IMG/VR virus record: IMGVR_UViG_3300017759_000006
Location: 1-54,367 of that record
Source of the DNA: a virus
Reading direction: 5' to 3' (one strand)
DNA: 54,367 bases
Notes under the pieces: model-generated
Database searches by the model: none
Told to the model about the DNA's origin: nothing
The model's input: only the letters and a program-made list of their open reading frames with translations
Part shown: positions 8,597-30,550 of the stretch, piece by piece
How positions within the stretch are numbered: position 1 is the stretch's first letter
Layout of the letters: the number at the start of each line of letters is the position of its first letter
Program-made: the position numbers and the translations under genes

Positions 8597-9079
8597 TTAT
8601 GATGCGTCAGAAGTACTAGAGATGCCGAAGAACTTGAGCACAATCACTGTGTCGCTTCCGGGGTCGCCAGAAACTACAAGCTCGACTTCATCGCCAACCA
8701 GACCGCTTGCGCCAGTGGTAAAACCAGACATGCCCAACACGCCGTTGCAACCAAAGAATCCTTTGAATCCGGTTGTGTTCAACGCGGCAGAGATGCCATC
8801 GACATAACCATCGGTGTCTGCGTCAGTACCAATGTCGTTGAGGCTTACAGCGTTTGTGGAAGCTGTGGTGACCGCTACGGTAACGCCCATAGGGATAAAG
8901 TTGACGGGAATTCCAACCGCAGTCTCTTTACCTGTCGTGTCCCCATTGGCTACGGTAATCGTGGCCTCATAGGTCTGCAACGTCATGGTGCTGGTAATAG
9001 CGCCTGTCGTGGAATTTTTGGTGATGTCTTGGAACCCGTTTTCAGAACGGACGGGACCGTTAAACGTAGTATTAGCCAT
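8597..9079 (-). CDS. Putative capsid-associated structural protein
   Basis: A 160-residue, Thr/Gly/Val-rich, beta-type protein (NTTFNGPVRSENGFQDITKN near the start). The start at 9079 has a strong ribosome site (CAGGAGAACCTC). It is the first gene downstream of the capsid terminator, so it needs its own promoter or read-through; an AT-rich stretch at 9121-9150 is a possible location. Position suggests a head decoration or head-tail joining protein; not proven. Confidence 0.5.
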   Translation of the reverse strand: MANTTFNGPVRSENGFQDITKNSTTGAITSTMTLQTYEATITVANGDTTGKETAVGIPVNFIPMGVTVAVTTASTNAVSLNDIGTDADTDGYVDGISAALNTTGFKGFFGCNGVLGMSGFTTGASGLVGDEVELVVSGDPGSDTVIVLKFFGISSTSDAS

Positions 9080-9149
9080 GAGGTTCTCCTGTCGTGGCCA
9101 GTGTCAGCCTCAGTATGGGGCTGTCAGGAAAAATTTATATTAACATAAA

Positions 9150-9165
9150 TGTTCCACGTGGAACA
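9150..9165. promoter_or_regulatory. parS-like 16-bp palindrome (copy 1)
   Basis: The sequence TGTTCCACGTGGAACA is a perfect palindrome and matches the chromosomal ParB-binding consensus tGTTnCACGTGnAACa. It lies in the gap after the capsid gene terminator; its last base overlaps the terminator T-tract. An identical copy lies at 12094. Binding by host ParB is inferred, not shown. Confidence 0.7.
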
Positions 9166-11277: not shown

Positions 11278-12198
11278 TTACTCCTTTACGTATTTCGCGT
11301 ATTCTTCAAGCGGCACTCCCAACTTTTTAGCAATTGTTACTTGGGTCGGGGAGAGTTTGACCCTTTTACCACTGCGCCCAGTTTTGGTGGAGCGTGAGAC
11401 ACCGGCAACATTCTGAGCGGGCTTGCGGCCAGTGGATTGCTCCTCTCCAAATTTATGCGGGAACTCCCGCTTAATTCTAGAGTCCAATTCATTGTAGTAG
11501 TCATCCCCTTGCGGGTCAAACCCTTCTTCTTCTATTAACTTTTTGTGAATTCCGAAGGCGGCAAAGGTCATCGCCTCATCGTTTCCAAACCAAGAGTTCT
11601 TTTCGGCCCACTGTTCGGCTTTAGGGTCAGGCCTTTGGGCCTGTTGCGGAGCCTGCTGTTGCGGCGCGGATTGCGGAGCCTGCTGTTGCGGAACCTGCTG
11701 GTTAGCTTCAGCGCGTCTCTGAGCCTGAGCATATTGATTAGCCGCAATACTAATATCCGTCAGTTCTTTCTGAGCAACTACAGTCCCTTCCGCATCACCT
11801 AGCTCAACAGCGCGTTTAAGAGCCGCTTCAGCCTGCTGTTGTTGAAGTTGAATGCGCTGACCGTATTCGGTCATAAAACCTTGATCTAGGTTCTGCATCC
11901 TTTGTTTAATCTGCTCTGATTCAGCCTGCACATTTTGTGCAAACTTCACAGCCTCTTCTTCACGACGCTCGGCTTCGCGCATTTTTTTAGTCAGACGATT
12001 AATACGCTTCTGTACAGATTCGCTGTACTCTGCGATCTCATCGTCAGACGAAGCCTCTTGCTCTATTTCAATCTCAGGTTCTTCCGAAGCAATTGTTCCA
12101 CGTGGAACATCTTCTTCAGGTTGCTCAATCTCTACCTCTGTGGCTTCAGCATCTCCCACATCTAATTCAAATTGAGGTTCTTCGGCAGGCTCTCCCAT
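11278..12198 (-). CDS. Putative capsid scaffold protein
   Basis: A 306-residue protein. The N-terminus is very acidic (residues 1-60). A long coiled coil follows (SVQKRINRLTKKMREAERREEEAVKFAQNVQAESEQIKQRMQ), then a Gln/Ala/Pro-rich linker with repeated P-Q-Q-Q-A-P, and a basic C-terminus (SKTGRSGKRVKLSPTQVTIAKKLGVPLEEYAKYVKE). Acidic, helical proteins with a basic C-terminal end placed between portal and capsid genes are the usual scaffolds. The parS-like copy 2 is embedded in codons for EDVPRGTIA. Confidence 0.7.
   Translation of the reverse strand: MGEPAEEPQFELDVGDAEATEVEIEQPEEDVPRGTIASEEPEIEIEQEASSDDEIAEYSESVQKRINRLTKKMREAERREEEAVKFAQNVQAESEQIKQRMQNLDQGFMTEYGQRIQLQQQQAEAALKRAVELGDAEGTVVAQKELTDISIAANQYAQAQRRAEANQQVPQQQAPQSAPQQQAPQQAQRPDPKAEQWAEKNSWFGNDEAMTFAAFGIHKKLIEEEGFDPQGDDYYNELDSRIKREFPHKFGEEQSTGRKPAQNVAGVSRSTKTGRSGKRVKLSPTQVTIAKKLGVPLEEYAKYVKE
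12094..12109. promoter_or_regulatory. parS-like 16-bp palindrome (copy 2)
   Basis: A second exact copy of TGTTCCACGTGGAACA, this time inside the scaffold gene, coding for V-P-R-G-T. Its exact conservation inside a coding sequence, where synonymous codons could differ, argues for selection on the DNA sequence. See copy 1 at 9150. Confidence 0.65.
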
Positions 12199-21937: not shown

Positions 21938-22147
21938 CCGCGGGGCGCGGCCCGCGGTACGTTTTGGACGGCGCTCGGGGCGCGGACCCCGCGCCCGTTG
22001 TTACCGGTGCAAGTTAAAGTAGATTCGAGGGGGCGTTTTGGGGCTTTGTGAAAACTCGGCCCAAAAAAATGGCCTAGGCATTGATCTGGCGGGGGTGTTC
22101 CTCCAGGGGAGGCGCTGCCGAACGGGTAGCCGTGCCAGAAACCAAAA

Positions 22148-22170
22148 ACTGTCGCAAACGGCAGGCAAAA
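22148..22170 (-). promoter_or_regulatory. Early-type promoter copy 1, no gene behind it
   Basis: Minus-strand GCCTGCCGTTTGCGACAGT follows the terminator T-tract and aligns with GCCTGTTGTATGCGATAGT before the gene at 24299. The -10 is GACAGT (+22148-22153) and the -35 would be the T-tract. Downstream are a hairpin (22114-22130) and TGGAGGAA (22098-22105), but no start codon at the expected distance. Confidence 0.5.
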
Positions 22171-22191
22171 AAAACCCCGCCGAGGCGGGGT
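22167..22191 (-). terminator. Rho-independent terminator
   Basis: Minus-strand stem CCCCGCC/GGCGGGG with a 2-base spacer, followed by eight T. It ends the operon 22711-22212 and its T-tract merges into promoter copy 1. Confidence 0.85.
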
Positions 22192-22211
22192 CCAGTGGTG
22201 GCCGCTACTGG

Positions 22212-22469
22212 TCAGCGGCGGGCGGGTATGCGGATCAGATCGCACTCGAGATCATCCGAGATCCCCCAGCGGACGAACGTGTCCCCCGTGGGCTTCAACC
22301 TGCCATTCACCGCTCGATAGATCAGCGGCTCCGCGTTCGCGGTTTTGCAGACAAGATACTCGGACTCATCAGTCAGCCCTTTCGACTGATCAAAGTCCCG
22401 TAGGCGCTTCACGCAGAACCAAACCATCATGCTCCCGTAAACCTGTTCGATCGGTGCGATCCGGATCAT
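22212..22469 (-). CDS. Early protein, unknown function
   Basis: An 85-residue protein (MIRIAPIEQVYGSMMVWFCVKRL and on) with mixed alpha/beta character and no recognisable domain. Its start overlaps the upstream gene by four bases (ATGA), so the two are co-translated. It is the last gene of a two-gene operon closed by the terminator at 22167. Small, individually regulated early proteins often modify host functions; no target is visible. Confidence 0.55.
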   Translation of the reverse strand: MIRIAPIEQVYGSMMVWFCVKRLRDFDQSKGLTDESEYLVCKTANAEPLIYRAVNGRLKPTGDTFVRWGISDDLECDLIRIPARR

Positions 22470-22711
22470 GCCTTGCCACCCTTGGCGCGCTTGAACTTTA
22501 CGCCCATCTCCGCCAGTAGGGTTTCGTCAAACTTCGCGAATTCTTCCGCGACTTGCAGGAATGCGGGGTAATGCTTTGCCAGTACCTTTCGGTTCTGGAT
22601 ATCCAGCGCGCACACTGCAGTGTGGATTCGATCGGCGGCAGTGGCCAATTCCCATACGCGGGTCTTCGCTACGCCTACCGTCTCAAGCTCGTTTTGAAAA
22701 TTGTTAGACAT
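22466..22711 (-). CDS. Early protein, unknown function
   Basis: The start is set at ATG 22711 (MSNNFQNELETVGVAKTRVW), 7 bases after the conserved ribosome site TTTGGAGA; a longer frame would run through the leader. The 81-residue product is helical with a basic tail (VKFKRAKGGKA). It is the first gene of its operon. No domain recognised. Confidence 0.6.
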   Translation of the reverse strand: MSNNFQNELETVGVAKTRVWELATAADRIHTAVCALDIQNRKVLAKHYPAFLQVAEEFAKFDETLLAEMGVKFKRAKGGKA

Positions 22712-22718
22712 ATGTCTG

Positions 22719-22747
22719 TCTCCAAAGTGTCGCCGCGACATTGCGGC
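22719..22747 (-). promoter_or_regulatory. Leader hairpin plus TTTGGAGA ribosome site
   Basis: Stem GCCGC/GCGGC (22732-22747) then TTTGGAGA (22719-22726) upstream of ATG 22711. Same architecture as the leaders at 23199, 24299, 25538 and 26328, with different stem sequence. Confidence 0.6.
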
Positions 22748-22753
22748 CCGCCT

Positions 22754-22780
22754 AGTATGCGATAAACGCCGGACAAAAAA
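22754..22780 (-). promoter_or_regulatory. Early-type promoter copy 2
   Basis: The -10 CATACT (+22754-22759) is 43 bases before the ATG at 22711. Seventeen bases upstream lies the T-tract of the preceding terminator, which would have to serve as the -35. Confidence 0.5.
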
Positions 22781-22799
22781 AACCCCGCCGTGGCGGGGT
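22775..22799 (-). terminator. Rho-independent terminator
   Basis: Stem CCCCGCC/GGCGGGG followed by eight T on the minus strand, 20 bases after the stop of the gene ending at 22819. Nearly identical to the one at 22167. Confidence 0.85.
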
Positions 22800-22818
22800 A
22801 GGTAAAAGCCGGAATTGC

Positions 22819-23199
22819 TTAGGCGGTTTTCTGATCAGCCGCGGACATTCTATCGATGGTCTCCCGCAACTGAATATTTGCTCGCTCAGTGTTCTCGAGA
22901 TCCAAGCGCAAACCGACCAGCGCGCTACCGATAATTTTGATGTATTGATCGCCCTCGGCCCCGCGGCCATCGAGAAACGCCATTACCCGGTCAAAAGTAA
23001 CGGTGTGCGCTTCGGGCACATCAATTCCATTAAATACGGCGGCTTCGATAACTTCGGCCACGGTGATATTGCTGTTATCCATCAACTCAAGAATATCTTC
23101 GGCATTATCGGCCCTAATATAATCGGGCACTTCGTCGCATACCTCAAAAGTCGCTGTGACTTCTACTTCCTGATCTTGGCTCAAATCAATTCGTATCAT
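22819..23199 (-). CDS. Early acidic protein, unknown function
   Basis: A 126-residue acidic protein from ATG 23199 (MIRIDLSQDQEVEVTATFEVCDEVPDYI), placed directly after the conserved TTTGGAGA site. A beta-type N-terminus is followed by helices (NAEDILELMDNSNITVAEVIEAAVFNG) and a coiled C-terminus. The N-I-T-V-A-E-V segment resembles N-I-T-L-A-E-L of the protein at 24180, so the two may be distantly related. It forms a one-gene operon with its own promoter and terminator. Confidence 0.6.
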   Translation of the reverse strand: MIRIDLSQDQEVEVTATFEVCDEVPDYIRADNAEDILELMDNSNITVAEVIEAAVFNGIDVPEAHTVTFDRVMAFLDGRGAEGDQYIKIIGSALVGLRLDLENTERANIQLRETIDRMSAADQKTA

Positions 23200-23243
23200 G
23201 GTTCTATTCTCCAAAATGAAAGCCGCAAAATTACGACACAGCT

Positions 23244-23270
23244 AGTGTCGCATACCCCGCGGACAAAAAA
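23244..23270 (-). promoter_or_regulatory. Early-type promoter copy 3
   Basis: The -10 GACACT (+23244-23249) inside GTATGCGACACT is 45 bases before ATG 23199. The terminator T-tract lies 17 bases upstream. The leader has a stem CGTAA/TTGCG at 23224-23235 and TTTTGGAGA. Confidence 0.5.
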
Positions 23271-23290
23271 AACCCCGCTCGAGGCGGGGT
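23265..23290 (-). terminator. Rho-independent terminator
   Basis: Stem CCCCGC/GCGGGG with a 5-base loop, then eight T on the minus strand. It closes the three-gene operon 24299-23297. Confidence 0.85.
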
Positions 23291-23296
23291 CAAATG

Positions 23297-23488
23297 TCAC
23301 TCAGGGTGATACCAACTAGGGGCGCGGGCTTGCTCCCCGTGGCGTTGCCAGTAGTCGGCATAGTGTCGCGCCTCCTGATACATTCGGAACCAATCCGGAT
23401 TGCTCTCGGGAAATCGTGAACGCATCGCCGCCCGATGCCAGCGCAAATAGCGCGCCGCCTTCACTCGCCATTGATCCCGCTTAATCAT
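23297..23488 (-). CDS. Small basic early protein
   Basis: A 63-residue basic, Trp/Arg/Tyr-rich protein (MIKRDQWRVKAARYLRWHRAAM) ending WYHPE. Its start overlaps the GP88-like gene by four bases. Possibly a nucleic acid binding or host-interaction peptide; no domain recognised. Confidence 0.5.
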   Translation of the reverse strand: MIKRDQWRVKAARYLRWHRAAMRSRFPESNPDWFRMYQEARHYADYWQRHGEQARAPSWYHPE

Positions 23489-24180
23489 GACGCGGCCCCT
23501 ATCAAATCGGGGTTATCCACTACAAAGCCGGACCGATCGTAACGGGCCGATCCTTTTGGGGTTAGCCCGACAATTTGACCAGTGGCAAACGCGTTGGCGA
23601 TATCGTCGCGATCCCCATCGATAACGGGCCGCCCGCGGAACATCCGCGGAAACCCGCCCCGAAAAACTACCGCCACGGGGGCGTCAGTTTGGAAAGCGCG
23701 CCGGTTTTGGTTTCGGTATTGGGGCCGCCCGCTATAGCTGAAAATGAGCTTGTAGTTATCGGGGGTTTTCCCAAGCCGGACCGCTTGCTTTGAATAGTCC
23801 ACAAATAAAAGCTCGGGGTGCGCTTGCGGTATGCCGTACCGTTCCCATTTAACATCTGAAACAACATTAAGCCGGACCGCGCCACGCTCGCCGGTGCGCT
23901 CACAAAGCTTTGTAAAGTTTGTTAGCTCACGGTGCAATTGCTCGAGAAACCCCGCCCGATCATTATGCAAGTATGCCGCCTTACGCTGGCGCGCCTCTCG
24001 CACGTTATCGAACCGCCCGCGGCCCTCATTTACTAAGCACCAGTCCATGCATCCCGCCGCTTTTGCTCCGGCACAAAGCACGTTATCCGGATAAAGCGAT
24101 AGCCCCGCATAGCGGAACGGGGCCGCCTTGCCCGTTTTTTTCAGTTTGGGGTTCGCGCCCCGAGTATCCAATAATTGCAT
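23485..24180 (-). CDS. GP88-family-like phage protein
   Basis: A 231-residue protein. The order G-A-N-P-K-L-K-K-T-G-K-A, A-G-L-S-L-Y-P, C-A-G-A-K-A-A-G-C-M-D-W-C-L-V-N-E-G-R-G, V-R-E-A-R-Q-R-K-A, and then V-R-L-N-V-V-S-D-V-K-W-E matches the GP88 domain family of phages as I remember it. The three closely spaced cysteines are conserved there. The biochemical role is unknown to me. It overlaps both neighbours (TAATG upstream, ATGA downstream), so the operon is coupled. Confidence 0.6.
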   Translation of the reverse strand: MQLLDTRGANPKLKKTGKAAPFRYAGLSLYPDNVLCAGAKAAGCMDWCLVNEGRGRFDNVREARQRKAAYLHNDRAGFLEQLHRELTNFTKLCERTGERGAVRLNVVSDVKWERYGIPQAHPELLFVDYSKQAVRLGKTPDNYKLIFSYSGRPQYRNQNRRAFQTDAPVAVVFRGGFPRMFRGRPVIDGDRDDIANAFATGQIVGLTPKGSARYDRSGFVVDNPDLIGAAS

Positions 24181-24299
24181 TAGTCCACCCCCATCAAAAG
24201 CTTTTTAAGATCCGCCACAGAACGGCCCGATTTTGCGGATAGCTCGGCAAGGGTAATGTTGGTTCTATCGAATAAATTAATAATTTGTTGATCACTCAT
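24180..24299 (-). CDS. 39-residue early protein
   Basis: Start at ATG 24299 behind TTTGGAGA: MSDQQIINLFDRTNITLAEL and on, ending KKLLMGVD. It looks like a single helix-turn-helix-sized unit (ITLAELSAKSGRSVADLKKLL), which could bind DNA, but it is too short to be sure. Its TAA overlaps the ATG of the GP88-like gene by one base. Confidence 0.55.
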   Translation of the reverse strand: MSDQQIINLFDRTNITLAELSAKSGRSVADLKKLLMGVD

Positions 24300-24341
24300 T
24301 TTTGTATTCTCCAAAGTCACCGCCCATCGCGGCCCGCTTAG

Positions 24342-24368
24342 ACTATCGCATACAACAGGCAAAAAAAA
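24342..24368 (-). promoter_or_regulatory. Early-type promoter copy 4
   Basis: The -10 GATAGT (+24342-24347) in GTATGCGATAGT is 43 bases before ATG 24299; the terminator T-tract is at the -35 position. The leader hairpin is CCGC/GCGG at 24320-24332. Confidence 0.55.
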
Positions 24369-24386
24369 GCCCCGCCGGAGCGGGGC
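24361..24386 (-). terminator. Rho-independent terminator
   Basis: Stem GCCCCGC/GCGGGGC with a 4-base loop followed by eight T on the minus strand, just after the DUF932 gene. A small extra inverted repeat ACACT/AGTGT lies between the gene and the stem. Confidence 0.85.
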
Positions 24387-24404
24387 ACACTTTGGAGTGT
24401 TAGA

Positions 24405-25538
24405 TCAGGCGGCCATGGCCACGCGTTGCCAATCGGATCGGGGCAGGTCCAACACGCGCCCGCCCAGCTTCTGCCAATCGTCCACACTGTCCGCGTCCGC
24501 GGTATGCGCTACCGCCGTGACCGCGTTTACCATTGTGGCACGGGTGACCGGCTGACCGGCATATCCGGACTGCCCGATAGTGGCCAGCAAGCCGTCCATT
24601 AAACTGGCGGTATCTTTTTTGGTCAGCGCCAGCACTTTGCCCATGGCCTCAACTGCCGATTGTGGCGAGCCTTCGACTTTGTCATCATGCGCGGTTTTTA
24701 TCTTTTCCAACACTTCATCGAATGATTCACGGCTAGCGTATGCGGCGGTCACGTCCCGCATCTGAAGCGCCAGCGCGTGATTATCAGCATCCTTTGCCTC
24801 ATCAGTCAGTAAACCCCACGTATCAGCATCGCCTCGAGCGCCAGTAATGTGAGACTTGCGTGTACGCTTTTCGGTTTGCATACCGTTTAAACAGGCTAGC
24901 GTCCAAAACATTTGGTACACGTTAACGCTACCGCACCCGACTTCACTGTTAGACATACCAATACCAAGCGCCATGATGTCGCCCACCGCCGCGCCCTCAC
25001 CGGTAATAACCGCTGACTTCAGTCGGAGGTACAGGCGCTTATCAGTCACAGTGCCGTTTACCACTTGCCACTGGGCATCGCTTTCCATTAGCTCGGGCAG
25101 GGCCGAATTCAACAGGTGCACATTGTCGAAAGTCTTAAACTTATCGCTGACAAACGCTCGAGCCGTGCCCGCGTTATCAGTGTGCTGGAATGAACGAATC
25201 ATTCGCACCGCTGGCTCTTTCTGCCAGATGGCATTGATCAGGCCATCGAATTCAGTGGAGTAATCCTGCTGAAGGCGGCGGGCAGTCCGGACATCAATAC
25301 CGGCCCGCTGGCTGATCTGATCAAACGCCACATCATTAGCGGACAGGATTTGAGTAGGTGCACCCCCCGTCTGCTCCATGATGATCTGACTGACTTTGCT
25401 ACCGTCACCCGCATCACCGGTCACAAGCTGAAGCTGATTCGTCGGGGCCAGAAAGTCCTGCGATCTGGCGGCTTGATCCTGTACCTGTTGAAGCAAACGG
25501 GTCAGGGTCTGGTCTGAGTTTTCAATTGAATTTTGCAT
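24405..25538 (-). CDS. DUF932-like protein
   Basis: Start at ATG 25538, 10 bases after TTTGGAGA, giving 377 residues (MQNSIENSDQTLTRLLQQVQ). The central part follows the DUF932 (LGT-like) plasmid and phage family: A-N-D-V-A-F-D-Q-I-S-Q-R-A-G-I, R-A-F-V-S-D-K-F-K-T-F-D-N, L-Y-L-R-L, I-G-M-S-N-S-E-V-G-C-G-S-V-N-V-Y, and L-A-C-L-N-G-M. The function is not established; it is often near genes acting on DNA. It is a one-gene operon with its own promoter and terminator. Confidence 0.65.
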   Translation of the reverse strand: MQNSIENSDQTLTRLLQQVQDQAARSQDFLAPTNQLQLVTGDAGDGSKVSQIIMEQTGGAPTQILSANDVAFDQISQRAGIDVRTARRLQQDYSTEFDGLINAIWQKEPAVRMIRSFQHTDNAGTARAFVSDKFKTFDNVHLLNSALPELMESDAQWQVVNGTVTDKRLYLRLKSAVITGEGAAVGDIMALGIGMSNSEVGCGSVNVYQMFWTLACLNGMQTEKRTRKSHITGARGDADTWGLLTDEAKDADNHALALQMRDVTAAYASRESFDEVLEKIKTAHDDKVEGSPQSAVEAMGKVLALTKKDTASLMDGLLATIGQSGYAGQPVTRATMVNAVTAVAHTADADSVDDWQKLGGRVLDLPRSDWQRVAMAA

Positions 25539-25558
25539 AGTTGCTCTCCAAAGCAAGC

Positions 25559-25574
25559 GCGGCAGGATTGCCGC
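25559..25574 (-). promoter_or_regulatory. Leader hairpin of the DUF932 gene
   Basis: Perfect 6-bp stem GCGGCA/TGCCGC with a 4-base loop, between the promoter at 25581 and TTTGGAGA. Counterpart of the hairpins at 22732, 24320 and 26346. Confidence 0.6.
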
Positions 25575-25580
25575 ATAGCC

Positions 25581-25609
25581 ACTATCGCATACGGGGCGGT
25601 GCGGGGCAA
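25581..25609 (-). promoter_or_regulatory. Early-type promoter copy 5
   Basis: TTGCCC (+25604-25609), exactly 17 bases, then GATAGT (+25581-25586) on the minus strand; -10 is 43 bases before ATG 25538. Here the -35 does not overlap a terminator, which supports reading the copies as sigma70 promoters. Confidence 0.6.
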
Positions 25610-25638
25610 CAGCTTTTTTAAAAATTTCTACAGGCATG

Positions 25639-25660
25639 AAAAAGCCGCCCGTGGGCGGCT
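25639..25660 (-). terminator. Rho-independent terminator
   Basis: Minus-strand stem AGCCGCCC/GGGCGGCT with a 2-base spacer, then TTTTT; it ends the operon 26328-25665. Confidence 0.8.
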
Positions 25661-25664
25661 ATTG

Positions 25665-25904
25665 TCACTTCAAAGTACGGTCTCGGATTTGCTGGACATA
25701 TTTCAAATCTCGACAAAGTTTACTGAGCATCACTTCGCCTTGCTCTGTGATGGGCGCTGGTCTACCAACGGGATCGTCGAAGAGCCAAACAAAATGACCT
25801 GTCACATTAAAGCCCTTACGGGCGCATTCCAGTGACCACGATTTGGGCAACGCATAAGAATATCTATGGTCAGGAAATAAGGCTTGAATTTCAGCGTCAG
25901 TCAT
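25665..25904 (-). CDS. Early protein, unknown function
   Basis: A 79-residue protein (MTDAEIQALFPDHRYSYALPKSW and on) with a short helix, a beta-rich middle (GFNVTGHFVWLFDDP) and a basic helical tail. Last gene of a three-gene operon; its ATG overlaps the preceding stop by four bases. No domain recognised. Confidence 0.5.
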   Translation of the reverse strand: MTDAEIQALFPDHRYSYALPKSWSLECARKGFNVTGHFVWLFDDPVGRPAPITEQGEVMLSKLCRDLKYVQQIRDRTLK

Positions 25905-26152
25905 ACGAGCCGCTTAAAATCAATTGGTGGATAAGCCCCTAACTGCGACTCGCCCACTTCAGTGAAGCCCTCGATGTGATTCAGAATCTCACACAGCTCG
26001 AGATCATCCCAGATGACCTTGTGGCCAATGAAAGGCACACCATCGTCTTCCTTCTGCCACGTGTCATGGGCATAGAGCCTCGCGGCTTTCTCGGTAACAA
26101 ACCACCGGCACTTTTCTCCAGACTCCACGGTCCACAATGTGATCAGACTCAT
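25901..26152 (-). CDS. Early protein, unknown function
   Basis: An 83-residue protein (MSLITLWTVESGEKCRWFVTEKAARLYAHDTW). Beta strands and a helix alternate as in a small alpha/beta fold. Both ends overlap neighbours by ATGA. No motif points to a function. Confidence 0.5.
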   Translation of the reverse strand: MSLITLWTVESGEKCRWFVTEKAARLYAHDTWQKEDDGVPFIGHKVIWDDLELCEILNHIEGFTEVGESQLGAYPPIDFKRLV

Positions 26153-26328
26153 GACTTATCCTCCAAACGTAAAAGCATGGCTTCACAGTCCTTCAAAGAT
26201 ACGCTGTCGCCCACTTCATCATCATAGGCATATTCATTGCCGCTCAGATTTTTGCTGTTCTGTAGCAGACACCGAAACATTTTTGTCAGCAATTCTTCGT
26301 TCGTTTTTGTCAGCAATTCTGCTTTCAT
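26149..26328 (-). CDS. Small helical early protein
   Basis: Start at ATG 26328 behind TTTGGAGA: MKAELLTKTNEELLTKMFRC and on, 59 residues, ending LRLEDKS. Two near-repeats ELLTKTN/ELLTKMF occur at the start. Acidic and helical; function unknown. First gene of its operon. Confidence 0.55.
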   Translation of the reverse strand: MKAELLTKTNEELLTKMFRCLLQNSKNLSGNEYAYDDEVGDSVSLKDCEAMLLRLEDKS

Positions 26329-26345
26329 TGTTTTCTCCAAATAGC

Positions 26346-26394
26346 GGGCAACATTGCCCACCGCCACTATATGCGGGTCAGCGCATACTTGCAA
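26346..26394 (-). promoter_or_regulatory. Early-type promoter copy 6 with leader hairpin
   Basis: TTGCAA (+26389-26394), 17 bases, then TATAGT (+26366-26371): the best sigma70 match of the set. A perfect 6-bp hairpin GGGCAA/TTGCCC (26346-26359) follows, then TTTGGAGA. The promoter overlaps the 3' end of the nuclease gene (stop at 26378), so it is internal to that transcript. Confidence 0.65.
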
Positions 26395-26812
26395 TACTTG
26401 TGAGGACCTCTCTGTAGGAAACAGGGAAACTAAAGTGCTTATCCGGTGTAGCCCGCAATCCGTCCTGCCATACGTCCACTGCTCGGTTGCCTCGGTAGAG
26501 GAACACCTCATGTCCTGTGGCGCTGGTCAGCTTGACGGCTATCCAGACACTGCCCTTGGCGTGTTGGGTCAGGAAGGCGACTTGGTGGGGAGACATCTTC
26601 ACGCTCATGTTGGCTGTGGTCTTCAATTCCACCATGTGCCAATTACCCTGACTGTCCATGATCAGGACATCCGGCACACCCAAGGTGGCTCTGGATTCTA
26701 AGCGTGTGGCTGACCAATCAGGAAAGTTGTCCCTCATCGCTTTCTTCAGAGACTGCCAAAAGCTCGCCTCCCTCTGTTTCTTCGTCTTCGGCTTCCCGTC
26801 CAGTATGTCCAT
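26378..26812 (-). CDS. PD-(D/E)XK nuclease (VRR-NUC-like)
   Basis: A 144-residue protein with the ordered nuclease core: an N-terminal helix (ASFWQSLKKAMRDNF), E in R-L-E-S-R-A-T, G-V-P-D-V-L-I-M, and H-M-V-E-L-K-T-T, followed by S-P-H-Q-V-A-F-L. The P-D...E-x-K set is the catalytic signature of small VRR-NUC and Holliday-junction-type enzymes. The start at 26812 has a strong ribosome site (GCGGAGGAAACAG) that lies inside terS, so the two genes overlap by 95 bases. It may resolve or trim concatemers before packaging. Confidence 0.7.
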   Translation of the reverse strand: MDILDGKPKTKKQREASFWQSLKKAMRDNFPDWSATRLESRATLGVPDVLIMDSQGNWHMVELKTTANMSVKMSPHQVAFLTQHAKGSVWIAVKLTSATGHEVFLYRGNRAVDVWQDGLRATPDKHFSFPVSYREVLTSIASMR

Positions 26813-27407
26813 CTGTTTCCTCCGCTAAACGCTCTCGAGCGCGTTTTCGATTACCAGCGTCCTCTGCCCCCGCGTCATGGGTCAAAGGGGCGTAGGTTTG
26901 CTTTAGTTCGTTCAAAGCTTTCATGACCTCTTCTTTGCTCATCTGCTCAATCGTGCCGTGACGAATCTCTGTCTTGTTAACGTAGATGTCACCCTGCGCC
27001 TGACCCCTGCGGTACTCAGCCTGCACTGCCGCACTGAACGCGCCTTGCTCGAGGGCGGCATCCCGAATAAGTTGCAGATCTCTCAAGTGGCGCTGGTATT
27101 CCACGCCGTACTTCTGATCAAGCTCCTGCCGATACTCTCGGATGGCTCTGCACACATGGGGAGAAATGCGGGGGTTAGTTAGCTCAGAAGCGCGAACGTG
27201 GGCAGACTTTTCAGGATAGCCCGCGTTGATGGCCGCTTCCCGCATGGTGATCTGACCATCTTTTGCTACAAGCTCACGTACAAATAACTCCTGCCGCCTG
27301 TTTAGCCGTTTCTCCGCCAAAGGGGGTCGGTTCGTCTGCTGGCGCTTTGCCTCGGGCAATGCCGCCGCCTTGGTATCTAAAACATTGGCGTATCTGTTCT
27401 TGGCCAT
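26718..27407 (-). CDS. terS: Small terminase subunit
   Basis: A 229-residue protein. The N-terminal DNA-binding part has L-N-R-R-Q-E-L-F-V-R-E-L-V-A-K-D-G-Q-I-T-M-R-E-A-A-I-N-A-G-Y, the helix-turn-helix pattern of Terminase_2-type subunits. This is followed by Y-P-E-K-S-A-H-V-R-A-S-E-L-T-N-P and a coiled middle. The segment G-D-I-Y-V-N-K-T-E-I-R-H-G-T-I-E-Q-M-S-K-E-E-V, and an acidic tail, complete it. It would recognise the packaging site. A ribosome site (GGAGG) lies 5 bases before ATG. Confidence 0.75.
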   Translation of the reverse strand: MAKNRYANVLDTKAAALPEAKRQQTNRPPLAEKRLNRRQELFVRELVAKDGQITMREAAINAGYPEKSAHVRASELTNPRISPHVCRAIREYRQELDQKYGVEYQRHLRDLQLIRDAALEQGAFSAAVQAEYRRGQAQGDIYVNKTEIRHGTIEQMSKEEVMKALNELKQTYAPLTHDAGAEDAGNRKRARERLAEETDGHTGREAEDEETEGGELLAVSEESDEGQLS

Positions 27408-27688
27408 GGGGCCTCCGTATCCGAGTAAGTTGCGATAACTTAGCTTAAAAAGCCCGATCTATATAGTATTTCTACAGAAAAACAAAAATATTTTTTTCAA
27501 AACTCAGAGCCCTATATGAAATAAGCTTGATTAAGCTCCGAAAATCACAGTGGTGTAGACAGTGGTACGGGTCCGGTACAGCAAAAAGTGAGCTTTTATG
27601 CGGGCTCCAAGGCCACCGTACCGCCGTACCGCCTGTACCGCCATTTTTCAATTTTATTTTTTATTTTTTTTATTTCTCTGGGAAAACT
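27408..27688. other. AT-rich intergenic region with GTACCG repeats (possible origin or packaging site)
   Basis: No gene is visible. It has a long AT-rich stretch (27655-27680) and, beside it, three direct copies of GTACCGCC at 27618, 27626 and 27635. Two inverted GGTAC copies lie at 27564 and 27575. On the minus strand TTGTTT and TATAGA spaced by 16 bases around 27462-27490 could be the terS promoter. Confidence 0.5.
27618..27642 (+). repeat. Three tandem GTACCGCC iterons
   Basis: GTACCGCC occurs three times with 8- and 9-base periods, and inverted GGTAC copies lie 40-55 bases upstream. Arrays like this commonly bind initiators or small terminases. Confidence 0.65.
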
Positions 27689-28423
27689 CTATATAGAAAG
27701 GCGTTTTAAGAGTTTGTAGTATTTCCGAGCTTCGGCTATTTCATTTTCGGCCACCAGCCGTTTCATCTCTTCGATAATCATCCGCTTTTTAAGCCGCTGG
27801 TCCTTATCCCACATTCTTTTTTCAACCTGTTGTTCCTTCCAACGCTTCTGTGCCGCGGACGCTGACCTGTGAAGCAAGAGCCGTTCTTCGCGCACCTGCT
27901 CCAGACTCTTTTCTTTGGTGGCCCTGATAACGCCCGCCTCAATGCCCCGTGGCCCGTGTTCCGTGGCGTCATCTTCTTTTCGCCTGATCCACCGCGCCTG
28001 CTCGGGCATACGCGGTCTGATGTTCAGTTCTTCGGGTCGTTTGTATTTTCTTTTATGTGGACGGCCCGTTGTCCGTTTTTTCCTCAGACCATCATCTTCA
28101 AACAGACGCTTGCGTTGGATGTACCTGCCATGGTTGTCGTGGGTGTCGTATTTACGTGGATCGTCGCAGTCCACCAGTTCCCCGTAGCTGTAGATCAAGT
28201 CTCTGCTGGGCTCAAAGTTTTCCAGACAGGGGGTGTCGTAGGGGTAGGTGCATTCGTTGTTGAGTCGAACCAGTTCATCGACATAGTAGTCTGGAAGTTT
28301 AAGTACGCGTGGTTTACGGCGTTTTAACGGACGATACTTTTGAGGACGCGTTATAAATTTATTTCCAGCCCACATCCCATCAGAGTAAGGGTTGAAATGA
28401 CGATCTTTTTTAAAATCAGCCAT
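27689..28423 (-). CDS. Basic phage protein, unknown function
   Basis: From ATG 28423 (MADFKKDRHFNPYSDGMWAGN) the protein has 244 residues and is strongly basic. It has K-R-R-K-P-R, a K-K-R-T-T-G-R-P-H-K-R-K-Y-K-R-P patch, and a long Arg/Lys/Glu coiled C-terminus. It may bind DNA or RNA. The last gene of the operon starting at 30179, upstream of the GTACCG repeats. No domain recognised. Confidence 0.5.
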   Translation of the reverse strand: MADFKKDRHFNPYSDGMWAGNKFITRPQKYRPLKRRKPRVLKLPDYYVDELVRLNNECTYPYDTPCLENFEPSRDLIYSYGELVDCDDPRKYDTHDNHGRYIQRKRLFEDDGLRKKRTTGRPHKRKYKRPEELNIRPRMPEQARWIRRKEDDATEHGPRGIEAGVIRATKEKSLEQVREERLLLHRSASAAQKRWKEQQVEKRMWDKDQRLKKRMIIEEMKRLVAENEIAEARKYYKLLKRLSI

Positions 28424-28437
28424 GCGACATAGCCCGT

Positions 28438-28797
28438 TTAAGAATCTCGGTCCGAAACTTCTGACCCAAAGTCCGTGAGCACACACCAGTTGTTCAAGCG
28501 CGTGTCCCAGAGCAGATACACTTTGTAGCCCGCGGAGAGGGCGATCTTGTACGCAATCAGGGCACTAAGCCTCTCCTCCACCCAGTACATACCAAAGCCT
28601 TTCTGAGGCGTGGTTGGTGGTTCGTCGCCGATATTTGCTGAAAGGGCTTCTACGGCTTCAAAGCGGCCTTCTTGTTCTGGTTCCCAGTAAATTGCTCCGC
28701 AAAAGGTGTGCCACAGGAAATCGAAATCATCCATGTCAAAGGACAGGGTGTGCCTGTCGGTTTCTTCAAGGACTTTGAGCAGTACGGTAGCTTCCAT
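28438..28797 (-). CDS. Hypothetical protein
   Basis: A 119-residue acidic protein (MEATVLLKVLEETDRHTLSFDM). It contains DFDFLWHTFCGAIYWEP and a helix AYKIALSAGYKVYLLWD, giving an alpha/beta impression. Ribosome site CGAGGATAAAACA. No motif identified. Confidence 0.5.
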   Translation of the reverse strand: MEATVLLKVLEETDRHTLSFDMDDFDFLWHTFCGAIYWEPEQEGRFEAVEALSANIGDEPPTTPQKGFGMYWVEERLSALIAYKIALSAGYKVYLLWDTRLNNWCVLTDFGSEVSDRDS

Positions 28798-28801
28798 TGT
28801 T

Positions 28802-28999
28802 TTATCCTCGTTTACTGGTCATGGGACGCATGTATCGTTCTTCGGCAAGTTGCACACGTTTCTTGGAACCGTCTGCCCACATGATCTCCATCCACTTGCG
28901 GCCTCGCTTCAAGATAGCCGCGGTCCGTTGTCCGTTATCCGTGTGGTATAGCACGGGTTCCCAGCCCCTGTTGAGGGCTTTTCGATAAGTCAGTTTCAT
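28802..28999 (-). CDS. Small basic hypothetical protein
   Basis: The start at 28999 is preferred because TGGGAGAAAGCT precedes it, close in form to the TTTGGAGA leaders. The 65-residue product (MKLTYRKALNRGWEPVLYHTD) is basic, with beta-rich A-A-I-L-K-R-G-R-K-W-M-E-I-M-W. It might bind nucleic acid. Stops 5 bases before the next gene. Confidence 0.5.
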   Translation of the reverse strand: MKLTYRKALNRGWEPVLYHTDNGQRTAAILKRGRKWMEIMWADGSKKRVQLAEERYMRPMTSKRG

Positions 29000-29090
29000 A
29001 GCTTTCTCCCAGTAGCCATAAAACATCTTACCACGCTTTACTCTCATACGTCAAATGATAGAAAAACGGAAAGGGTTGCGTTTTGGTTTT

Positions 29091-29351
29091 CTATCGAAAC
29101 TTGCGTTGGATGTATTTGAAGGCGCTGTAGATAGTCAGCACGTAGAAGGCTATGACGGTCATGGGTATGGAGATGTAGGCCAGTTCCCACGGGGACAGGA
29201 ACAGAAGCTCCCACGTAAATTGAAGAGCAGACTCAACGTCCCCCATGGGCGCTAAATCATAGGCTATGTCGTTTTCGTCTAGCAGGAACTGGAGGTCATC
29301 CCATTCTTCGGGCGTGTAGCACCGGACGTAATCTTCCGGACAGGGTTGCAT
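29091..29351 (-). CDS. Small membrane protein
   Basis: An 86-residue protein with an acidic N-terminal part (PEDYVRCYTPEEWDDLQFLLDENDIAYDL) and C-terminal hydrophobic segments (LLFLSPWELAYISIPMTVIAFYVLTIY), ending in a basic tail (FKYIQRKFR). Start ATG overlaps the preceding TGA by one base. Function unknown; a membrane-associated early protein. Confidence 0.5.
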   Translation of the reverse strand: MQPCPEDYVRCYTPEEWDDLQFLLDENDIAYDLAPMGDVESALQFTWELLFLSPWELAYISIPMTVIAFYVLTIYSAFKYIQRKFR

Positions 29352-29629
29352 CAATGAAGCATGGACCCGTGGGCCGAGTTCACATAATCCTCATGCTTCT
29401 CGAGGAGATAGTCGGTGTAGATTTCAAAGCCCATGTGGCACAGCCCTGCAAAGAACTCCTGCTCGCTTTCGGCGGACAGGATTTTCATCATGCTTTGGCA
29501 GGTTTCATCCCCGAGCCATGAGTCGTTTGTGGTTTCGTTTATGACAAAGTCGAGGAAAGCCTGATCGTCTTCCAACAACTGGGCAATCTCTCGACGTTGG
29601 TTAGTGGTCACTAACTTTTTATCGCTCAT
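29351..29629 (-). CDS. Hypothetical acidic protein
   Basis: A 92-residue acidic, helical protein (MSDKKLVTTNQRREIAQLLEDDQAFL). It overlaps upstream (ATGA) and downstream (TGATG) genes. No motif recognised. Confidence 0.5.
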   Translation of the reverse strand: MSDKKLVTTNQRREIAQLLEDDQAFLDFVINETTNDSWLGDETCQSMMKILSAESEQEFFAGLCHMGFEIYTDYLLEKHEDYVNSAHGSMLH

Positions 29630-29964
29630 CTAAACCTGTTGCCTAGCAAGGCTTTGGACCTCTCGAGGCAACGATTGTAAGACTTACAGCAGTAATTGTC
29701 TGCCCGCGGCGTCAGTAGCGTGTCGAGGATTCTACGGACGATTCTCCAAAAACAACTTTCAGTGGTTCTGAAGGCGCGGCTGGATATTGTTTCGGCAGGG
29801 TTTCCGCCAAATAAAATGTTTAGCGCAATGGATAGACCGTCAATCAAGTCAACCACATAAACTTTCGCTCGTTTTAGCTTCGAGTTTTTCAACATTTTTT
29901 TCATCCGAGGATAATGGTCGGGGTGTAAAGCTGAAACGTCTATGATAATTGTGGTTTCGCTCAT
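29626..29964 (-). CDS. Hypothetical basic protein
   Basis: From ATG 29964 (MSETTIIIDVSALHPDHYPR) the product has 112 residues: a beta strand TIIIDVSA, a helix MKKMLKNSKLKRAKVYVVDLIDGLSIALNILFGG and a basic Cys-containing end (YCCKSYNRCLERSKALLG). The start overlaps the upstream membrane protein gene by four bases. Function unknown. Confidence 0.5.
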   Translation of the reverse strand: MSETTIIIDVSALHPDHYPRMKKMLKNSKLKRAKVYVVDLIDGLSIALNILFGGNPAETISSRAFRTTESCFWRIVRRILDTLLTPRADNYCCKSYNRCLERSKALLGNRFR

Positions 29965-30179
29965 GCAACTATGCCCACTAAGCTCATAATCAAAAGGATA
30001 CCACCAAGGATGGCGTATTCTTTCCATGTCATGGGCTTGAATTGCTCGGGCTCTGCTTCGTTGTCCGTGGTCCCTGACGCTTCGACGCCGCCCACTGTGA
30101 CCCATGCCTCATTCTCTGGCGTGTTTGGATCGTCTGCCACAAACTGACCGCTCTTGGTTCTTGCTCGTTTTTTAGCCAT
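29961..30179 (-). CDS. Single-span membrane protein of common phage type
   Basis: A 72-residue protein: basic start M-A-K-K-R-A-R-T-K-S-G-Q-F-V-A-D-D-P, an acidic middle (NEAWVTVGGVEAS), and a C-terminal span (YAILGGILLIMSLVGIVA). Proteins with this MAKKRARTKxGxFxADDPxTP start are frequent in phages of marine bacteria; the role is unknown to me. First gene of the operon at 30.2-27.7 kb, with ribosome site TAGGAG. Confidence 0.55.
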   Translation of the reverse strand: MAKKRARTKSGQFVADDPNTPENEAWVTVGGVEASGTTDNEAEPEQFKPMTWKEYAILGGILLIMSLVGIVA

Positions 30180-30221
30180 CACGCTCTCCTATATCGGTGT
30201 ACGATGGTTCCCATAAACTAA

Positions 30222-30248
30222 CATATATGCGGACCCCGCGCAAAAAAA
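30222..30248 (-). promoter_or_regulatory. Early-type promoter copy 7
   Basis: The -10-like TATATG (+30222-30227) in CCGCATATATG aligns with CCGCATATAGT of copy 6 and lies 43 bases before ATG 30179, the same distance as copies 2, 4 and 5. The T-tract of the terminator at 30242 lies about 16 bases upstream. Confidence 0.45.
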
Positions 30249-30268
30249 ACCCGGCTCTAGGGCCGGGT
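30242..30268 (-). terminator. Rho-independent terminator
   Basis: Minus-strand stem ACCCGGC/GCCGGGT with a 6-base loop followed by eight T. It closes the replication block whose last gene ends at 30377. Confidence 0.8.
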
Positions 30269-30289
30269 CGGGATCATCATTTTGCAGTC

Positions 30290-30319
30290 ACTTTGGAGAA
30301 AACTATGGTTGATCCCTAA
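30290..30319 (+). other. Orphan plus-strand leader with 4-codon frame
   Basis: CACTTTGGAGAAAACTATG on the plus strand copies the ribosome site of the early leaders, but the frame is only M-V-D-P then stop (30305-30319). It is either a remnant or a leader peptide. Confidence 0.3.
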
Positions 30320-30334
30320 TTACTTTTAGGAGTC

Positions 30335-30364
30335 CTGCGATCCCCCCATGAAAGGTTATCGCAG
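30335..30364. repeat. Inverted repeat
   Basis: CTGCGAT (30335-30341) and ATCGCAG (30358-30364) form a perfect 7-bp stem with a 16-base loop, just after the stop at 30377. CGAT/ATCG echoes the early promoter motif. Confidence 0.4.
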
Positions 30365-30376
30365 AAGTTCAAGGTA

Positions 30377-30550
30377 TCACTCAGGTCGGATAATTTCAAG
30401 AACCTCCATGGTAGCCTCTGACAAAGGCGTAATGGACAGATCTTTTTGAATAGCTATAGGCTGTTTGAGCCGGTTAGCGGTTTGCTGTCCGGCTTGTATT
30501 GAAATCAGCACGTCTTCAATTTCTTCTTGGGTTATTAATATCTTTTGCAT
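30377..30550 (-). CDS. Small hypothetical protein
   Basis: Start at ATG 30550 (MQKILITQEEIEDVLISIQA), 57 residues, with a possible ribosome site GGAGCGGG. It overlaps the preceding small gene by 35 bases. Helical and acidic; no function visible. Confidence 0.45.
   Translation of the reverse strand: MQKILITQEEIEDVLISIQAGQQTANRLKQPIAIQKDLSITPLSEATMEVLEIIRPE

What the first reader, a model, noticed from the sequence alone, without database searches (positions are those of the whole stretch)
22098..30248. Repeated early-gene cassette: terminator, promoter, variable hairpin, TTTGGAGA, start
At least six early genes (22711, 23199, 24299, 25538, 26328, 30179) share a promoter motif (TATGCGATAGT or ATCGCATACT forms) whose -10 lies 38-45 bases before the ATG, four of them at exactly 43. 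Between them is a hairpin, then TTTGGAGA (TAGGAGAG at 30179). Stems differ (GCCGC/GCGGC, CCGC/GCGG, GCGGCA/TGCCGC, GGGCAA/TTGCCC) but pairing is kept, i.e. compensatory change. A variant leader (GGGGGC/GCCCCC, TTTGGCGA) lies before the primase gene. This recalls start-associated sequences of some mycobacteriophages but is a different sequence and includes a hairpin. It may set translation efficiency or RNA stability, or bind a phage protein.
Basis: partly seen in the sequence, partly recalled or inferred. Interest (0 to 1): 0.85.

Follow-up and report, generated by a model that had tools for sequence, protein, structure and literature searches.

The report
Phage RNA matching its early-gene ribosome sites
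The early genes of this marine virus start with a small RNA hairpin and a shared ribosome-binding block, and the same virus carries a small structured RNA whose loop is the reverse complement of that block and changes in step with it across relatives, so one RNA probably controls translation of the whole early gene set.

Summary
The leaders are real. Five of the six have an extended -10 promoter, a hairpin starting at the predicted transcript 5' end, then TTTGGAGA; 30179 fits poorly. In about 65 distinct leaders from relatives, pairing is kept while stem sequence changes (own halves -10.3 kcal/mol, swapped halves about -7.2; 0/300).

The larger result lies beside them. At window 30364-30242 (-) is an unannotated RNA with its own sigma70-like promoter and terminator, found once per phage in about 60 relatives downstream of polA. 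Its stems covary (62 two-sided changes against 24 shuffled). Its loop UCUCCAAAGUG is the reverse complement of the leader block CACUUUGGAGA. The match co-evolves: TTTGGAGA leaders go with CTCCAAAG loops, TTTGGGAGA leaders with CTCCCAAAG loops; leader type changed at least twice on the tree, matched both times. More distant phages with ACTACGGAG or ACTACGGGA leaders carry a matching small RNA. In the window the five leaders are the top five of 67 genes for predicted pairing.

Best reading: a phage antisense RNA blocking the Shine-Dalgarno blocks of the early regulon. Binding and repression are not shown.

The parts
22711..22764 (-). Early leader 1: -10 TATCGCATACT, hairpin GCCGC/GCGGC, TTTGGAGA, ATG
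23199..23254 (-). Early leader 2: TATGCGACACT, hairpin, TTTGGAGA, ATG
24299..24352 (-). Early leader 3: TATGCGATAGT, hairpin, GACTTTGGAGA block, ATG
25538..25591 (-). Early leader 4 (phrog_1362 gene): TATGCGATAGT, hairpin GCGGCA/TGCCGC, TTTGGAGA, ATG; orthologous leader seen in about 45 relatives
26328..26375 (-). Early leader 5: CGCATATAGT, hairpin GGGCAA/TTGCCC, TTTGGAGA, ATG
30179..30231 (-). Atypical leader 6: GCATATATG, weak fold, TAGGAGAG, ATG
30371..30399 (-). Predicted sigma70-like promoter of the anti-SD RNA: TTGAAA-N17-TACCTT (weak -10 in the window; TATACT, TATATT or TATTAT in relatives)
30242..30364 (-). Anti-SD RNA (about 123 nt): SL1 30364-30335, linker ACTCCTAA, SL2 with anti-SD loop, SL3 terminator. 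The covariance-model match covers 30328-30245
30270..30316 (-). SL2: outer stem GGGATC/GATCCC, inner stem AGU/ACU, loop UUUCUCCAAAGUG
30289..30299 (-). Anti-SD loop TCTCCAAAGTG, reverse complement of CACTTTGGAGA
30242..30268 (-). Intrinsic terminator of the RNA (ACCCGGCCCTAGAGCCGGGT + T8)
24361..24401 (-). Element A: second anti-SD hairpin ACACT-CCAA-AGTGT plus terminator, 3' end of the phrog_1362 mRNA

Best explanation
The early genes form a translational regulon. Each is transcribed by host RNA polymerase from an extended -10 promoter. Its mRNA begins with a hairpin at the 5' end, followed by a shared Shine-Dalgarno (SD) block (CACUUUGGAGA here). The phage also makes a separate small structured RNA (window 30364-30242, minus) from its own sigma70-like promoter. 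A loop of this RNA presents UCUCCAAAGUG, complementary to the SD block. Pairing in trans covers the SD block and stops ribosome loading on all targets at once, perhaps with RNase III cleavage, so early translation is shut off or capped. The 5' hairpin leaves the SD block single-stranded and accessible, and probably shields the mRNA 5' end from decay. A second copy of the anti-SD hairpin in the 3' UTR of one target (24401-24361) could act on its own mRNA. Shown: structure, covariation, co-evolution of block and loop. Inferred: transcription, binding, direction and timing of the effect.
For: One copy per phage at a fixed place downstream of polA in about 60 contigs. Covarying stems: 62 two-sided cells against 23.6 +- 3.7 in shuffles, 0/500; inner stem 4.2 bp own against 2.2 swapped, 0/2000. 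Block and loop types agree in essentially every contig that has both. The tree forces at least two changes of block type, each matched; L088 is close to the window but carries the other type in leaders and in both anti elements. Scan for SD words whose reverse complement lies upstream of a terminator: 40 contigs, 0 for reversed-word controls. Independent SD families ACTACGGAG and ACTACGGGA have matching RNAs with their own promoters. The five leaders rank 1-5 of 67 genes for predicted pairing. Promoter TTGARR-N17-TANNNT in most of the 33 relatives examined. No Rfam family matches.
Against: No expression data; the host is unknown. The -10 in the window (TACCTT) is weak, and part of the -35 overlaps a conserved coding end. 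The element-B loop of L065/L068 is of the CC type although their leaders are GGG. Leaders of L060, L061 and L067 are mixed. Some polA-74% relatives and the isolates DSL-LC04, HTVC023P and HTVC027P showed no matching pair by this scan. An early-made repressor of early genes needs a timing argument that is not available.
Confidence: 0.72

Rival explanations
1. The leaders alone are the story: a 5'-terminal hairpin that stabilises early mRNAs (ompA-like) with a strong SD. The reversed SD elements near terminators are incidental or parts of terminator structures.
For: The hairpin starts at the predicted +1, varies in sequence but not in pairing, and does not cover the SD. Known principle for ompA (own knowledge).
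Against: Does not explain the conserved SD block beyond GGAG, the covarying RNA with the complementary loop, or matched switches of block and loop. Reversed-word control found none.
Confidence: 0.12
2. Cis 5'-3' UTR pairing as in S. aureus icaR: the anti-SD element acts mainly on its own mRNA, and element B is a 3' UTR, not a free RNA.
For: Element A sits in the 3' UTR of a gene that has the leader. icaR precedent (PMC3868564).
Against: Element B and the family-2 RNAs have their own promoters just upstream, and element B follows a gene that is not among the promoter-plus-TTTGGAGA leader genes found.
Confidence: 0.15
3. The RNA is an attenuator or leader of the gene behind it, and the anti-SD match reflects a structural switch in cis.
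For: In family 2 the next gene starts about 20 nt after the terminator with no visible second promoter.
Against: In the window a separate promoter follows the terminator; the match is to leaders of many distant genes and follows their sequence.
Confidence: 0.08
4. The reversed element is a leader of an opposite-strand gene, or an inverted copy kept alike by recombination.
For: At 30292 (+) it reads TTTGGAGAAAACTATG. TATGCGATA and TATCGCATA are mirror forms.
Against: Opposite-strand ORF is four codons; the start codon is absent in L088 and L016; family-2 loop lengths break any frame; covarying stems on the sense strand.
Confidence: 0.04

Closest known systems
C4 RNA of phages P1 and P7, and sar RNA of P22
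   Same: Phage-made antisense RNA that blocks a ribosome-binding site; in C4 the complementary parts probably sit in loops (PMC12197685).
   Different: One target (ant) in a temperate immunity circuit; here one RNA matches the shared SD block of at least five early genes.
icaR 3' UTR of S. aureus (UCCCCUG anti-SD motif)
   Same: Anti-SD motif near the 3' end pairs with the SD, blocks ribosomes and exposes the mRNA to RNase III (PMC3868564).
   Different: Bacterial, mainly one mRNA with itself; here a separate RNA with several leaders as predicted targets.
Start-associated sequences (SAS/ESAS) of cluster K mycobacteriophages
   Same: A repeated SD-containing block at many early genes of one phage, with an upstream inverted repeat at about half of them; function unknown (PMC3203893).
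   Different: Unrelated sequence; ESAS repeats contain promoters and are much longer. A matching anti-SAS hairpin was seen only in some K1 phages.
S. aureus Rsa-type sRNAs with UCCC loops (own knowledge)
   Same: C-rich loop targets SD sequences of many mRNAs.
   Different: Host sRNAs using a generic SD complement; no co-evolving private SD block.
ompA 5'-terminal stabilising hairpin (own knowledge)
   Same: Hairpin at the very 5' end of the mRNA, clear of the SD.
   Different: Single bacterial gene; here reused across phage early genes.

Membership tests
Trans-acting antisense sRNA | Own promoter and terminator | tested here: met
   By sequence only: TTGARR-N17-TANNNT and intrinsic terminator conserved; the -10 in the window is weak.
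Trans-acting antisense sRNA | Conserved secondary structure | tested here: met
   0/500 shuffles, 0/2000.
Trans-acting antisense sRNA | Complementarity to targets kept by co-variation | tested here: met
   Four block types matched; at least two changes forced on the tree; exception L065/L068.
Trans-acting antisense sRNA | Expressed and regulates the targets | not testable with these tools
   No RNA data for these phages.
SAS/ESAS of cluster K | 13-bp GGGATAGGAGCCC at start codons | tested here: not met
   The block here is CACTTTGG(G)AGA.
icaR-type 5'-3' UTR pairing | Anti-SD motif in the 3' UTR of the same mRNA | tested here: inconclusive
   Element A yes; element B follows another gene and has its own promoter.
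ompA-like 5' stabiliser | Stem within a few nt of the 5' end, SD free | tested here: inconclusive
   First paired base at predicted +1 in most leaders; true 5' ends unmapped.
Known Rfam family | Reaches a gathering score | tested here: not met
P1 C4 RNA | Homology or single ant target | tested here: not met
   No Rfam match; targets are several early genes.

The most novel reading that the evidence does not exclude
A class of lytic-phage riboregulators: each lineage marks its early genes with a private SD block and encodes one small RNA whose loop is the exact complement, so a single RNA silences the whole early regulon. The pair drifts together, which would give incompatibility groups and exclusion of superinfecting kin. 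The same logic may underlie the unexplained SAS of cluster K mycobacteriophages.
Probability: 0.4. Interest if true: 0.92.

Novelty: new variant of a known kind. Interest (0 to 1): 0.82.

Why it matters
Small RNAs of lytic phages are few and mostly of unknown function. Here a phage-made RNA, its whole target set and the exact pairing rule can be read from sequence, and nature has already made the compensatory mutants (CTCC with GGAGA, CTCCC with GGGAGA, CTCCGTAG with CTACGGAG). It would explain why some phages carry a repeated start-site block, a question open for mycobacteriophages since 2011, and it gives a method: look for the reverse complement of the block next to a terminator.

Tried and rejected
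Megablast against phage records: no relatives. Rfam: nothing at the leaders or the RNA. Outer-stem permutation test: no power, because most relatives share GGGTTC/GAACCC; the covariance-model alignment shows two-sided changes instead. DSL-LC04, HTVC023P and HTVC027P: no block and anti-block pair by the word scan. polA-74% relatives: terminator-linked RNAs with promoters exist, but a match to their leaders was not shown, except L257. Cluster K: a single reversed SAS in Adephagia lies in a long hairpin in a non-coding gap and is kept in some K1 phages, but is lost in others and absent in Pixie and in K6 phages, so it is only a lead. TM4 record not held. Host search: five hits in metagenome-assembled bins of unrelated phyla, so the host is unresolved. 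Opposite-strand gene reading rejected: no conserved start or frame. Literature searches found no description of such an RNA, but the held library is incomplete. Two paper searches failed on term format.
Full report
What the window is. The record is a 54,367-base linear virus contig from IMG/VR, 50% GC. Portal, large terminase, polA, helicase and primase families are present. Its polA is nearest, at 49-56% identity, to Phage DSL-LC04, phage 023Pt_psg01 and the Pelagibacter phages HTVC023P and HTVC027P. The host is unknown.

Checking the observation. Five leaders (ATG at 22711, 23199, 24299, 25538, 26328) have the described order: promoter-like motif, hairpin, TTTGGAGA, ATG. Distance from motif end to ATG is 42, 44, 42, 42 and 37 bases. 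The sixth (30179) has another -10, another SD and a weak fold. Relatives of the 25538 gene show what the motif is: TTGCA - about 17 - (TATGC)GATAGT, a sigma70-type promoter with an extended -10 (the assignment is inference from consensus). About 130 leaders from relatives were collected. After removal of near-copies 70 remain; their fold z-score averages -2.4, and the first paired base lies 5-9 nt after the -10 in 55 of 66, with the mode at 7, which is the predicted transcript start. Joining the 5' half of one leader with the 3' half of another weakens the fold from -10.3 to about -7.2 kcal/mol in every one of 300 permutations.

The unexpected part. TTTGGAGA also occurs reversed, directly upstream of terminators. 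One such place is 30298-30291 (minus strand). In relatives the same place reads as a folded RNA: an outer stem (GGGATC/GATCCC, GGGTTCA/TGAACCC, GGATTC/GAATCC), an inner stem (AGU/ACU, AUGUU/AACAU, AAAUA/UAUUU, UUUCA/UGAAA) and a loop UUCUCC(C)AAAGUG, followed by the terminator. A covariance model finds one copy per phage in about 60 distinct contigs, always downstream of polA, including window 30245-30328 (-) at 71 bits. On 34 distinct rows 89% of cells pair, with 62 two-sided changes against 23.6 +- 3.7 in shuffles (0/500) and a covariation score of 0.35 against 0.13 (the alignment was fitted to the model, which leans towards the structure). Independently of that alignment, the inner stem has 4.2 pairs on average against 2.2 with swapped partners (0/2000). 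Upstream lies TTGA(A/G)(A/G)-N17-TANNNT in most of 33 relatives. In the window this puts the transcript start at 30364, which is the first base of another hairpin, SL1. The RNA is therefore probably an independent gene of about 123 nt.

Co-evolution with the leaders. The loop is the reverse complement of the SD block. Phages whose leaders read TTTGGAGA have two C's in the loop; phages whose leaders read TTTGGGAGA have three. This holds in essentially all contigs that carry both, for this RNA (element B) and for a second, shorter anti-SD hairpin at the 3' end of the phrog_1362 gene (element A, window 24401-24361). The exception is element B of L065/L068; L060, L061 and L067 have mixed leaders. 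A tree of the phrog_1617 protein forces at least two changes of leader type: the window clade against its near sister L088/L184, and L165. The anti-SD elements present follow both times (elements A and B in the window clade, element A in L165). A blind scan asked which 9-base words of SD regions recur in a contig and have their reverse complement just upstream of a terminator: 40 contigs, and none for reversed words. It found a further type, L257, with AACTACGGGAG leaders and TCCCGTAGT. Searching for the analogue in phages with TACGGAG leaders gave one copy of CTCCGTAGTTGA plus terminator in three contigs, L124, L130 and L137. A scan of viral contigs gave more than ten further examples with a promoter (TTGCTT...TATACT or TATAAT), a 5' hairpin GAACAUG/CAUGUUC, the anti-SD stretch and a terminator. 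There CTCC goes with GGAG leaders and TCCC with GGGA leaders. The pairing is thus kept across four versions of the block.

Specificity in the window. Predicted duplex energy between the loop and the start regions of 67 genes puts exactly the five early leaders on top (-22.2 to -17.9 kcal/mol; median -7.1), followed by 28999 (-17.3).

Mechanism. The most economical reading is an antisense RNA that covers the SD block of the early mRNAs. Shown: the elements, their structures, their conservation and their matched change. Inferred: that the RNA is made, binds, and lowers translation. Timing (early shut-off, dosage control or exclusion of kin) is open. The 5' hairpin may stabilise the mRNA and keep the block single-stranded; its loop also has a recurrent AAU or GAU, so protein binding is not excluded.

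Compared with what is known. P1 C4 and P22 sar block one ribosome site each (PMC12197685). icaR pairs its 3' UTR with its own SD (PMC3868564). Cluster K phages have a repeated start block of unknown function (PMC3203893; PMC11373665). In Adephagia the only reversed copy of that block sits in the loop of a long hairpin in a 432-base non-coding gap. It is kept in CrimD, Stinson, Anaya, Curiosium and SgtBeansprout but not in KiSi, Chris, Yuna, Unicorn or Pixie, so this is a lead only.

Limits. All evidence is comparative. Many contigs are fragments and near-copies; independent events were counted only on the tree. Covariance-model E-values are rough. The first-stage idea of RNA stability is untested. 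My notebook entry 7 misplaces the parS-like sites; the correct positions are 9150-9165 and 12094-12109.

Noticed in passing
window 9077-9129 (-): Strong match (65 bits, gathering 49) to Rfam RF03012 Mu-gpT-DE RNA, downstream of the 9195-10100 gene, in capsid-like position; a parS-like palindrome TGTTCCACGTGGAACA lies between them at 9150-9165.
   Followed up: no
L031 5880, L036 659, L050 6559, L014 1878, L017 4246; window 9150-9165 and 12094-12109: In several relatives the leader hairpin is TGTTCCACGTGGAACA or a near form, which looks like a chromosomal parS site, in front of small genes of unknown function.
   Followed up: partly
L259:32695 (Adephagia record about 58694): The single reversed SAS of cluster K1 mycobacteriophages lies in the loop of a long hairpin in an intergenic gap: a candidate anti-SAS RNA.
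   Followed up: partly
L237, L241, L244, L248 and related loci, 1.1-2.5 kb downstream of polA: polA-74% relatives have terminator-linked short transcription units with TTGACA-type promoters at the same place; targets not identified.
   Followed up: partly
window 30334-30320 (-): The linker of the RNA holds a conserved ACTCCTAA, complementary to the TAGGAG SD of the gene behind it (30179) and also able to pair with TTAGG of SL2.
   Followed up: no
window 22711-26328, motif TATGCGATA / TATCGCATA: The two -10 forms are exact mirror images, so these promoters may fire in both directions.
   Followed up: no
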